64,000 bases of DNA from assembly GCF_004005375.1 (NCBI RefSeq), contig NZ_RZUF01000016.1:1-64000 (forward strand). The letters run 5' to 3'. Origin of the DNA: Rheinheimera sediminis (GTDB lineage: Bacteria > Pseudomonadota > Gammaproteobacteria > Enterobacterales > Alteromonadaceae). Position 1 is the first letter of the stretch; the number at the start of each line of letters is the position of its first letter. Below the pieces are notes generated by a model. The model was not told the DNA's origin, made no database searches, and saw only the letters and a list, made by a program, of their open reading frames with translations. The translations under genes and the position numbers were made by a program. Of this stretch, positions 27,084 to 28,578 are shown piece after piece.

Positions 27084-27869
27084 CTAATTTATCAGCAGCG
27101 CTTCCTGCTCTAAAAAGCAACCTTTTAGCTGTAATGCTTCCAACAAGCCATAAAAGTGGTGTTTTTCAGCCAATTCCAGCGCTTTAGTTAACTGATGTGG
27201 ATGCTTGGGTTTGTTATTAAATAACTCCTGCCAGGGACTAAAGTCTGCAGGGGTGACAAAGCTTAGCTTTTCACCCAGGCGTTGTTTTAATAAATCAAAC
27301 AACTCCAAAGCTGCAGCGTCAAAATCAAAAGCACAATAAATCTGTTGGTACTGCTGATAAAAAGGTGTCAGCAAGGCTGAACTGGCTTTACTACCGGACG
27401 CAAAGCCAATGTCGCTGTTAAGCAAAGAAAAATCCAGCGCCAGCATTTGTCCGCAGACAGGTAACATTTCTGGATAACGGAAAAAACATTCTTCGTTTTC
27501 AATCAACAATAAACAGGGTTTGGCTTGATAACTCTGGAATTTATTTGTGCCATCCAGCACCACGACTTCTGGCTGCCGGTTCTGACAGCGTTCGTGGTAC
27601 ACCAATTGATAACCGAAAGATGTATTCACCTGATGCGAGTTTCCAGTCTGGGCGGCCTCTTTACGGGACGCTGGTTGCCACACTTGCTGTTCAAGCTGGC
27701 GAAATAGCACCTCAGAAACAATACTGACCTGCCAACGACCTGAGCCTAACTGACGCACTTTAAACATCTCTGACTTTTTCTGATAAAACAACGGCGGCAA
27801 CAACTCCAGCATGCGACCATAATGCATAGCTTTGCCCTGACGAATTTGTTGCAGATATTTTTTTAACAT
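27084..27869 (-). CDS. Orphan JetD-like TOPRIM protein (DUF7281-like)
   Basis: A 261-residue protein whose C-terminal half looks like the TOPRIM domain of JetD and topoisomerase VI A: the acidic IENEECFF (about residues 135-142) and YCAFDFDAAALELFDLLK, with the metal-binding DxD. An intervening GFASGSKASSAL matches the family's glycine stretch. TOPRIM nucleases of this type cleave plasmid DNA in Wadjet systems, but no jetA, jetB or jetC lies here. ATG 27869, with GGAG 6 bases upstream, is preferred over an upstream TTG. The substrate and role are unknown. Confidence 0.6.
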   Translation of the reverse strand: MLKKYLQQIRQGKAMHYGRMLELLPPLFYQKKSEMFKVRQLGSGRWQVSIVSEVLFRQLEQQVWQPASRKEAAQTGNSHQVNTSFGYQLVYHERCQNRQPEVVVLDGTNKFQSYQAKPCLLLIENEECFFRYPEMLPVCGQMLALDFSLLNSDIGFASGSKASSALLTPFYQQYQQIYCAFDFDAAALELFDLLKQRLGEKLSFVTPADFSPWQELFNNKPKHPHQLTKALELAEKHHFYGLLEALQLKGCFLEQEALLIN

Positions 27870-27959
27870 TCCTGGCTCCAGATTGGGCTCTGTCTTGCTT
27901 CTGATAGCAGTGAACCGCAAAGCAAGCAGCTTGGCAAGTGTAGTGAAAGCTTTATCAAC

Positions 27960-27993
27960 CTGTCATAAAAATGCCACTGAACGGCCCGATAAT
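27960..27993 (+). promoter_or_regulatory. PhoB-activated promoter (Pho box plus -10)
   Basis: CTGTCATAAAAATGCCAC (27960-27977) matches the 18-bp Pho box consensus at 16 positions. Exactly 10 bp later is GATAAT (27988-27993), the same Pho box to -10 spacing as in the phoA promoter of E. coli. There is no -35 element, as expected for a PhoB-dependent promoter. Transcription would run rightwards from about 28000. Confidence 0.75.
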
Positions 27994-27999
27994 AAGCAG

Positions 28000-28097
28000 C
28001 AGTTAAATGCGAACCCTGTGTACATGTTGCTTTAACTCTCTGGATTGTCCTGGATTTTTGATGAGGGAAACCTTCGTGGTTCTCCCTCTTTTTTTTT
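28000..28097 (+). ncRNA. Candidate phosphate-starvation small RNA or attenuated leader
   Basis: The interval between a PhoB-type promoter and a strong intrinsic terminator is about 98 nt and has no convincing reading frame. A 41-codon frame from ATG 28007 has no Shine-Dalgarno and runs through the terminator. The 9-base U-tail is typical of Hfq-bound sRNAs. Alternatively the RNA is the leader of the DUF3429 gene at 28168 and the hairpin is an attenuator. The 5' end is estimated from the -10, and no known sRNA family is recognised. Confidence 0.5.
28063..28097 (+). terminator. Strong intrinsic terminator without an upstream coding gene
   Basis: The stem pairs GAGGGA with TCCCTC and AACC with GGTT around a TTCGT loop, with one bulged C, followed by nine T. 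The nearest upstream gene is on the opposite strand, so the terminator must end a non-coding RNA or attenuate the gene at 28168. Confidence 0.85.
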
Positions 28098-28167: not shown

Positions 28168-28578
28168 ATGCGCCAGATCCAACTTTTAGGTTACGCCGGC
28201 CTGCTGCCCTTTATTGGTCTAACCTTATTGCAATTAATGCCTCACACTTTGGCGCTGCAAGTTCCTTTTACCGCTTTCCAAAGCTATAGCCAAATTATTC
28301 TGGCTTTTATGGCTGGTGTACTCTGGCCTGCACTCTATCAGCAGCCAGGACGTTTTTTTCCACTCTGGGTGGTGAGCTTTGCATTGACAGGCTGGTTTAG
28401 CAGCTTGCTTGCAGCGCCAGAGCAAGTTCTAGTTCTGGCTGCTGCTTTTGCCACATTAAGAGTGTTTGAAATCTGGCATCACAATCAATTAGCCTACTCT
28501 CCAGCCTACGGTAGATTAAGAACCCATCTGACCACTGTGGTTGTGACCTGTCATCTCTTATACTGGTGGTCACTCTGA
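28168..28578 (+). CDS. DUF3429 membrane protein
   Basis: A 136-residue inner-membrane protein with about four to five hydrophobic helices (LLGYAGLLPFIGLTLL, AFMAGVLWPAL, and others), recognised as DUF3429. No function is known for the family. ATG 28168, with AGGAAAA upstream, is the best start; the frame is open further upstream only through the terminator. Expression may depend on read-through of the hairpin at 28063. Its 3' end overlaps the convergent rhodanese gene by 28 bases. Confidence 0.75.
   Translation: MRQIQLLGYAGLLPFIGLTLLQLMPHTLALQVPFTAFQSYSQIILAFMAGVLWPALYQQPGRFFPLWVVSFALTGWFSSLLAAPEQVLVLAAAFATLRVFEIWHHNQLAYSPAYGRLRTHLTTVVVTCHLLYWWSL

What the first reader, a model, noticed from the sequence alone, without database searches (positions are those of the whole stretch)
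27960..28097. PhoB-driven small RNA (or attenuated leader) not explained by any gene
A 16/18 Pho box followed at exactly 10 bp by GATAAT, matching phoA geometry, is followed about 70 bp later by an intrinsic terminator with nine T. The gene to the left is on the opposite strand and the next plus-strand start is 70 bp beyond the terminator. The unit therefore predicts a phosphate-starvation-induced RNA of about 98 nt ending in an Hfq-type U-tail, or a Pho-controlled attenuator for the DUF3429 gene. I recognise no known sRNA in it.
Basis: partly seen in the sequence, partly recalled or inferred. Interest (0 to 1): 0.8.

Follow-up and report, generated by a model that had tools for sequence, protein, structure and literature searches.

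The report
Phosphate-starvation small RNA of Rheinheimera
Beside an unremarkable gene, a group of environmental bacteria (Rheinheimera) carries a short, strongly conserved RNA gene that sequence evidence says is switched on when phosphate runs out; it most likely tunes other genes by base pairing, but neither its expression nor its targets have been shown.

Summary
At 27960-28097 a Pho box (16 of 18), exactly 10 bp before GATAAT, is followed by a ~98-nt unit ending in a terminator with nine T. Pho box, -10, RNA and terminator occur together in 12 of 22 genomes of the genus (own included): 12 of 12 in the window's clade, 0 of 10 outside it. Pairwise divergence is 0.023 in the 36-column core, against 0.437 at four-fold sites of the neighbouring gene. 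In 3 of 12 genomes DUF3429 is absent from the locus while the RNA stays intact, which counts against the attenuator alternative. Two genomes carry an ERIC-type repeat inside the 5' hairpin loop. The reading frame is not conserved. The genome has PhoB and Hfq, and phoB and pstS show the same 10-bp geometry. No Rfam family matches at gathering score. Best explanation: a PhoB-activated, Hfq-type, base-pairing sRNA family found so far only in this Rheinheimera clade. Targets were not found: the screen did not beat controls, an rpoS candidate was not conserved, and gltB/lipoprotein candidates also occur in genomes lacking the RNA. Transcription itself is untested.

The parts
27930..27959 (.). Conserved upstream block (CTTGGCAAGTGTMGYGAAAGCTTTATCAAC): possible second, weak PhoB site in 11-bp register with the Pho box, or promoter or regulator site of the divergent gene
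   Evidence: Divergence 0.00-0.09 in 7 genomes, against 0.26-0.48 further upstream; 0.050 over all pairs of 12. Assignment is inference.
27960..27977 (+). Pho box (PhoB-binding site)
   Evidence: 16/18 to consensus; one of 7 genome sites with 1 mismatch in 17, none has 0; present in 12 of 12 clade genomes
27988..27993 (+). -10 element GATAAT, exactly 10 bp after the Pho box
   Evidence: identical GATAAT in 11 of 12 genomes, CATACT in G008
28000..28097 (+). Predicted sRNA of about 98 nt (start +/-1-2 nt inferred from the -10)
   Evidence: Covariance model R1 matches 12 of 22 genus genomes, the 12 it was built from; no conserved reading frame
28001..28037 (+). 5' hairpin AGTTAAATGC...GCTTTAACT; its apical loop carries inserts (ERIC-type in G014 and G015, a shorter insert of unknown origin in G008)
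28038..28062 (+). Nearly invariant, mostly unpaired core CTCTGGATTGTCCTGGATTTTTGAT: proposed seed plus U-rich Hfq site
   Evidence: Divergence 0.023 over all pairs of 12 genomes for the 36-column core, which also takes in the 3' arm of the 5' hairpin; function inferred
28063..28097 (+). Rho-independent terminator: 10-pair stem with one bulged C, then nine T
28168..28578 (+). DUF3429 protein (PF11911), downstream neighbour; not part of the unit
   Evidence: Pfam E 4.8e-18; absent at the locus in 3 of 12 genomes
27087..27869 (-). Divergent left neighbour, 261 aa, no Pfam family (E up to 0.001) and no NCBIfam family (E up to 1)
   Evidence: match in 22 of 22 genus genomes

Best explanation
A free-standing small-RNA gene of the Pho regulon. 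When phosphate is scarce, phosphorylated PhoB binds the Pho box at 27960-27977 (perhaps also the conserved block just upstream) and, in place of a -35 element, recruits sigma-70 RNA polymerase to GATAAT. A ~98-nt RNA starts at about 28000 and ends in the U-tail of the terminator. It has a 5' hairpin whose loop is only a spacer, a nearly invariant single-stranded core (CUCUGGAUUGUCCUGGAUUUUUGAU) and a terminator hairpin with U-tail. Hfq is expected to hold the U-rich stretch and the tail, and the core to pair with mRNAs, probably near ribosome-binding sites, to change their translation. Shown by sequence: architecture, joint conservation, independence of DUF3429, lack of a conserved ORF, presence of PhoB and Hfq genes. 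Inferred: PhoB-dependent transcription, Hfq binding, base pairing. Unknown: targets.
For: Pho box plus 10-bp-spaced -10: 0 of 100 shuffles; same geometry at phoB and pstS of the same genome, 7 of 23 sites against ~0.4 expected. The whole unit is found in 12 of 22 genus genomes by covariance model and in the same 12 of 60 genomes by BLAST, own genome included in both. Divergence over 66 pairs: core 0.023, terminator 0.075, Pho box 0.077, -10 0.056, start to 5' stem 0.113, against 0.356 in the 10-bp spacer, 0.422 in the hairpin loop and 0.437 at four-fold sites of the left gene. Outer edges of the conserved block coincide with the promoter region and the terminator. Unit intact where DUF3429 is missing. 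Hairpin loop tolerates an ERIC-type repeat. Hfq gene present. ORFs not conserved.
Against: No transcript data. No base pair shows compensatory change: 0 of 25, because the arms hardly vary. Whole-RNA fold energy is only modestly better than shuffles (z -1.96). In G008 the minimum-energy fold does not keep the 5' stem, and its -10 is weaker (CATACT). Target screen: best conserved duplexes are no stronger than for the reversed and 18 shuffled cores. The strong rpoS-leader duplex in G015 is not conserved in G021. Complementary sites before gltB and a lipoprotein gene are also found in genomes without the RNA. Absent from 10 of 22 genus genomes.
Confidence: 0.77

Rival explanations
1. Pho-controlled leader: the terminator is an attenuator (or riboswitch-like switch) that regulates read-through into DUF3429.
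For: DUF3429 starts 70 bp downstream on the same strand and is the next gene in 9 of 12 genomes, counting a partial hit at a contig end in G007.
Against: In G003, G012 and G015 the convergent rhodanese gene follows and no DUF3429 match lies in the ~3-kb locus, yet the unit is intact (elsewhere in those genomes was not searched). The stretch between terminator and DUF3429 is not conserved (divergence up to 0.54). No conserved leader peptide. The consensus fold shows no competing antiterminator (alternative folds were not examined systematically).
Confidence: 0.07
2. The RNA is an mRNA for a small protein (for example MRTL..CCFNSLDCPGFL), or a dual-function RNA.
For: A GTG- or ATG-initiated frame of this kind is seen in 7 of 12 genomes: six with a stop after 18 codons, and G000 open to the end of the RNA.
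Against: In the other 5 of 12 the frame is lost or changed: that start codon is absent in G003 and G014, an early stop in G007, a short or different frame in G015 and G008. I see no Shine-Dalgarno sequence before it, and conservation looks as strict at would-be third codon positions (my reading).
Confidence: 0.05
3. A protein-titrating RNA (for example a CsrA sponge through its GGA motifs) rather than a base-pairing sRNA.
For: Two CUGGAUU repeats and a GGGA lie in the core and terminator (sequence).
Against: Few GGA motifs, none in a hairpin loop in the consensus fold; no dedicated test was run. CsrA site rules are recalled.
Confidence: 0.08
4. Not a transcribed unit: a fortuitous promoter and terminator, with conservation due to the promoter of the divergent left gene.
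For: The upstream block 27930-27959 lies between the two genes and could serve the left gene; a weak -35/-10 match was seen on the minus strand, at the rate of shuffles.
Against: It would not explain conservation of 28005-28094 on the far side of the -10 (divergence 0.00-0.15) nor the preserved terminator and T-run in 12 of 12.
Confidence: 0.03

Closest known systems
E. coli Pho regulon promoters of the phoA/pstS type
   Same: Two 7-bp half-sites 11 bp apart, -10 at 10 bp, no -35 (recalled); same geometry at phoB and pstS of the window's genome.
   Different: Drives a terminated non-coding unit rather than a protein gene.
STnc1860 of Salmonella Typhimurium (PMC5001712, passages seen)
   Same: An sRNA whose level depends on PhoB/R; the only sRNA changed in the phoB/R mutant in that study.
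   Different: STnc1860 lies downstream of phoU and is co-transcribed from the pstS start; the present RNA has its own Pho-box promoter in an intergenic region. Sequences were not compared.
srvg23535 of Vibrio alginolyticus (PMC6186989, passages seen)
   Same: A 107-nt intrinsic-terminator sRNA of a gammaproteobacterium with a predicted PhoB site (among crp and narL sites) at its promoter.
   Different: The predicted site is an 8-base software match (ATGTAACA), not a two-half-site Pho box; PhoB control was not shown in the passages seen. Full sequences were not compared.
EsrL of pathogenic E. coli (known here only from passages of PMC10294691)
   Same: Reported phosphate-related, PhoB-linked sRNA gene.
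   Different: That paper did not detect PhoB binding upstream of esrL by ChIP-seq. Sequence not compared.
PhoS of Bacillus (known here only from passages of the review PMC12101431)
   Same: An sRNA induced by phosphate limitation.
   Different: A Gram-positive sRNA under the Bacillus PhoR system; the original paper is not held and sequences were not compared.
Phosphate-responsive sRNAs of Sinorhizobium meliloti (PMC8829014, PMC2573895; passages seen)
   Same: Many sRNAs respond to phosphate stress, some bind Hfq, some have predicted PhoB sites.
   Different: Alphaproteobacterial. In PMC2573895 the four phosphate-induced ones had no evident PhoB site.
The PhoB-induced, Hfq-dependent activator of rpoS in E. 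coli (Ruiz and Silhavy 2003, as cited in PMC8829014; not read)
   Same: Same proposed logic: PhoB -> sRNA -> Hfq -> mRNA.
   Different: The rpoS pairing tested here is strong in G015 but not conserved in G021, so identity of role is not supported.
Rfam sX14 (RF02233)
   Same: Best sub-threshold Rfam match over the RNA.
   Different: 15.3 bits against a gathering score of 80, E 1.1: chance level.

Membership tests
PhoB regulon promoter | Two direct half-sites 11 bp apart, followed at 10 bp by a -10 | tested here: met
   present in 12 of 12 clade genomes, with a weaker -10 in G008
PhoB regulon promoter | PhoB encoded in the genome, with the same site geometry at known Pho genes | tested here: met
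   PhoB TIGR02154 372.1 bits over a cut-off of 296.2; PstS-family TIGR02136 275.9 over 206.6; geometry
PhoB regulon promoter | PhoB-dependent transcription in low phosphate | not testable with these tools
   No expression data available
Hfq-type intergenic trans-acting sRNA | Own promoter and Rho-independent terminator with a U-tail of 7 or more | tested here: met
   Seven to nine T in 12 of 12
Hfq-type intergenic trans-acting sRNA | No conserved reading frame | tested here: met
   Frame lost or changed in 5 of 12
Hfq-type intergenic trans-acting sRNA | Highly conserved unpaired segment able to act as seed | tested here: met
   Core divergence 0.023 against 0.437 at four-fold sites; only a weak short hairpin predicted in it
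Hfq-type intergenic trans-acting sRNA | Hfq gene in the genome | tested here: met
   PF17209, E 2.2e-29, over the cut-off
Hfq-type intergenic trans-acting sRNA | Physical binding to Hfq | not testable with these tools
   Needs CLIP or co-immunoprecipitation
Hfq-type intergenic trans-acting sRNA | mRNA targets with conserved complementarity | tested here: inconclusive
   706 ortholog pairs screened (about a quarter of two genomes), no excess over control cores; rpoS, gltB and lipoprotein candidates fail conservation or specificity
Cis attenuator of DUF3429 | Constant association with the downstream gene | tested here: not met
   DUF3429 absent from the locus in 3 of 12 genomes with an intact unit
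Any described Rfam family | Match at gathering score | tested here: not met
   0 matches in the window at gathering; at the locus 5 matches at E 1.1 or worse, far below their gathering scores

The most novel reading that the evidence does not exclude
A new sRNA family, confined to one Rheinheimera clade, that is a dedicated PhoB-activated output arm: an autonomous intergenic gene with a canonical Pho-box promoter that links the phosphate response to Hfq-mediated mRNA control. Its 5' hairpin works as a tolerant scaffold into which an ERIC-type element has been accepted without loss of the conserved core.
Probability: 0.6. Interest if true: 0.6.

Novelty: new member of a known kind. Interest (0 to 1): 0.52.

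Why it matters
In the papers seen here, PhoB-controlled sRNAs of gammaproteobacteria are few: in one Salmonella study the single PhoB/R-dependent one comes from the pst operon transcript, E. coli EsrL's PhoB site is disputed, and for V. alginolyticus srvg23535 the site is only predicted. A free-standing sRNA gene with a clean Pho-box promoter would give a tractable case of how phosphate limitation is relayed to mRNA control, and would make the PhoB-sRNA-Hfq link reported for E. coli (as cited) directly testable in a new genus. The natural insertions in the hairpin loop offer ready-made variants that show which parts matter.

Tried and rejected
Attenuator of DUF3429: rejected as the general role, because the RNA persists at loci without the gene.

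Small protein: rejected; the frame is not conserved.

Known RNA family: none at Rfam gathering score; sub-threshold matches at chance level.

Mobile origin: no match at E 1e-5 in 72,556 plasmid or 50,697 phage records.

Long complementarity: TCCAGGACAATCC with up to 1 mismatch in 6 of the 12 bearing genomes gave 30 matches, 6 of them the sRNA itself, against 12 for the reversed control. Of the 24 others, some recur at the same gene (sucD-like in 4 of 6), but I saw none at a ribosome-binding site: they lay inside reading frames, antisense to one, or with no frame assigned.

Target screen: core against the starts of 706 ortholog pairs from 1.2 Mb each of G021 and G015 (about a quarter of each genome). 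53 pairs below -16 kcal/mol, against 46 to 153 for the reversed core and 18 shuffled cores: no signal. gltB and a lipoprotein gene gave conserved duplexes. For gltB, 12 of 12 sRNA-bearing genomes have the site; of the 10 without the sRNA, 3 of the 4 located by my script have it and 6 were not located. For the lipoprotein, 10 of 12 bearing genomes show it (in 2 my script took a wrong place, probably because of contig ends); of the 10 without the sRNA, 8 show it, 1 was misplaced and 1 had no protein match. So no association with the sRNA.

rpoS: prompted by Ruiz and Silhavy as cited in PMC8829014. In G015 the leader pairs at -24.0 kcal/mol (10 of 2000 shuffled cores as good), but in G021 only -14.6 (1017 of 2000); the joint value would rank 160 against 706 pairs: rejected as a conserved target.

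Tree of the left gene: the sRNA-bearing clade is supported 100/100 against 4 of the 10 non-bearers (midpoint rooting; the program warned of long branches), but its inside is unresolved, so whether G014 and G015 share one insertion cannot be settled.

Origin of the 55-base insert of G008: its 75-base query found nothing in the window or the two 1.2-Mb stretches; unknown.

Full report
What is there. The window is a contig of a genome (G000) whose nearest named relatives are Rheinheimera. Between a minus-strand gene of 261 aa (27087-27869; no Pfam or NCBIfam family) and a plus-strand DUF3429 gene (28168-28578, PF11911) lie CTGTCATAAAAATGCCAC (27960-27977), ten bases, GATAAT (27988-27993), and a unit that ends in a 10-pair hairpin with one bulged C and nine T (28063-28097). 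The predicted RNA runs from about 28000 to 28097, 98 nt. The simple terminator scan did not list the terminator, probably because of the bulge.

Is it more than chance? The Pho box alone is weak evidence: at up to two mismatches the genome has 23 sites, against 25 for the reversed pattern. The combination is not chance: box plus 10 bp plus -10 occurs once in the window and in none of 100 shuffles. Of the 23 genome sites, 7 have a -10-like hexamer exactly 10 bp on, where the background rate of 1.6% gives about 0.4. These 7 include phoB (TIGR02154), pstS (TIGR02136) and this site, so the promoter belongs to the Pho-regulon class in this genome. A ppk-like gene also has a box but its hexamer fails my rule (gene names other than PhoB and PstS are my reading of the translations).

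Conservation. BLAST of 181 bases finds the unit in 12 of 60 genomes, own included, all in the genus. A covariance model built from these 12 finds the same 12 of 22 genus genomes, 8 of 295 genomes drawn from the family (all eight in this genus) and 1 of 394 drawn from the order (the window's own genome); the two large searches used stricter filters that lose weak matches. An exact 22-base pattern of the core finds 9 contigs in the collection of 84,980 species genomes (own or very near genomes may be left out there): Rheinheimera faecalis, tangshanensis, mesophila, soli, strains A13L, 1928-s and W122, and two unnamed gammaproteobacterial assemblies. The 12 bearers are exactly the genomes whose left-neighbour protein is 87-100% identical to the window's; the 10 non-bearers have 49-55%. 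The 12 form one group in a tree with 4 of the 10 non-bearers (support 100/100, midpoint rooting, long-branch warning). The sequence before the left gene in the 10 others was printed and I see no such unit.

The constraint is strong. Over all 66 pairs of the 12 genomes, divergence is 0.023 in the 36-column core, 0.075 in the terminator, 0.077 in the Pho box, 0.056 in the -10, 0.050 in a block just upstream and 0.113 from the start through the 5' arm, against 0.356 in the 10-bp spacer, 0.422 in the hairpin loop and 0.437 at four-fold degenerate sites of the left gene. In 7 of the 12 genomes (those with DUF3429 and no insert) the conserved block starts at about 27930 and ends with the T-run; within it the 15-base windows over the spacer and start are looser (0.20-0.30). 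Spacer and loop drift, as expected of a promoter spacer and of a mere loop. No pair of the predicted helices shows compensatory change, 0 of 25, so the structure rests on conservation and energy, and the whole-RNA energy is only modestly better than shuffles (z -1.96).

Independence from the neighbour. In G003, G012 and G015 no DUF3429 match lies at the locus and the convergent rhodanese gene follows the terminator; the RNA is intact. Whether those genomes hold DUF3429 elsewhere was not searched. This speaks against an attenuator as the general role. The frame MRTL..CCFNSLDCPGFL is present in 7 of 12 and lost or changed in the other 5.

A natural insertion. In G014 and G015 the 5' hairpin loop holds ~125 extra bases, and in G008 about 55. 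The G015 insert matches dispersed repeats in 22 of 22 genus genomes, 1 to 48 counted matches per genome; not all candidates were scored, so counts may be low. It also matches E. coli DNA: 5371 of 5426 genomes have a place covering at least 80% of it, all best places at 60-80% identity, the top ones 73% over 135 bases. One such E. coli place lies between genes and holds the ERIC2 primer sequence 22/22 and ERIC1R 20/22; the Rheinheimera insert itself matches these primers only 15/22 and 13/22. So the insert is an ERIC-type element, a diverged relative of the E. coli one. In the G015 fold the outer stem, core and terminator remain and the insert forms a long extension of the hairpin; in G008 the minimum-energy fold does not keep the 5' stem, a point against that stem being essential there. 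The G008 insert is not shown to be ERIC.

How it most likely works. PhoB-P activates transcription in low phosphate; the RNA ends at an intrinsic terminator whose U-tail, with the U-rich stretch before the hairpin, is the usual Hfq site (general knowledge); the core pairs with mRNAs. The Hfq gene is present. Architecture, conservation and independence are shown; PhoB dependence, Hfq binding and base pairing are inferred.

Targets. None established. A screen of 706 ortholog pairs gives no excess over control cores. gltB and a lipoprotein gene have conserved complementary ribosome-binding regions, but these occur also in genomes without the RNA. The rpoS leader, suggested by the E. coli precedent cited in PMC8829014 (passages seen), pairs strongly in G015 but not in G021.

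Against what is known. No Rfam family matches at gathering score, and the sub-threshold list is at chance level. Salmonella's only PhoB/R-dependent sRNA in PMC5001712, STnc1860, comes from the pst operon transcript (passages). EsrL in E. coli is PhoB-linked but disputed (passages of PMC10294691). Vibrio alginolyticus srvg23535 has a predicted PhoB site (passages of PMC6186989). S. meliloti and Bacillus have phosphate-responsive sRNAs (passages). A search for Rheinheimera with small RNA found 5 papers; by title and abstract start, none is about an sRNA of this genus. A broader search with Rheinheimera among five terms found 4,515 papers holding any two terms; none of the 8 listed contains the genus name. 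These searches cover only open-licence papers. I therefore class it as a new member of a known kind: a new sRNA family under probable PhoB control.

Noticed in passing
L014:1592-1726 (G015), and 22 of 22 genus genomes: ERIC-type repeats are abundant in this genus: 29-48 counted matches in each of the 12 sRNA-bearing genomes, 39 in G004 and G013, 1-10 in the other 8 (counts may be low). The G015 copy is 73% identical over 135 bases to its best E. coli matches.
   Followed up: partly
27930-27959: A block upstream of the Pho box (with AAAGCTTT) is almost invariant in the clade; it may be a second PhoB site, another regulator's site or the divergent gene's promoter.
   Followed up: partly
L261-L272, L278-L281 and L283-L303, upstream of gltB and of a VolA-like lipoprotein gene (names are my reading): The motif CAGGACA is conserved just before the ribosome-binding site of both genes in most genomes where the start was located, with and without the sRNA; it may be a site for some other RNA or RNA-binding protein.
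   Followed up: partly
G000:C13:123635-147494: A stretch of ~24 kb with several Pho-box-like sites next to phoB, pstS, a ppk-like gene and a porin-like gene: apparently the Pho locus of this genome.
   Followed up: partly
G015:C1:1047395-1047419, rpoS leader: In G015 the rpoS leader has a strong predicted duplex with the sRNA core (-24.0 kcal/mol, 10 of 2000 shuffles as good); not conserved in G021, the only other genome checked.
   Followed up: yes
L307 and start of L306, G021:C1 at least 987301-988580: G021 has a TonB-receptor-like gene after rpoS; the 600 bases of L307 have no match in the G015 stretch, where the next conserved gene follows rpoS directly (the receptor call is my reading of the translation).
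   Followed up: no
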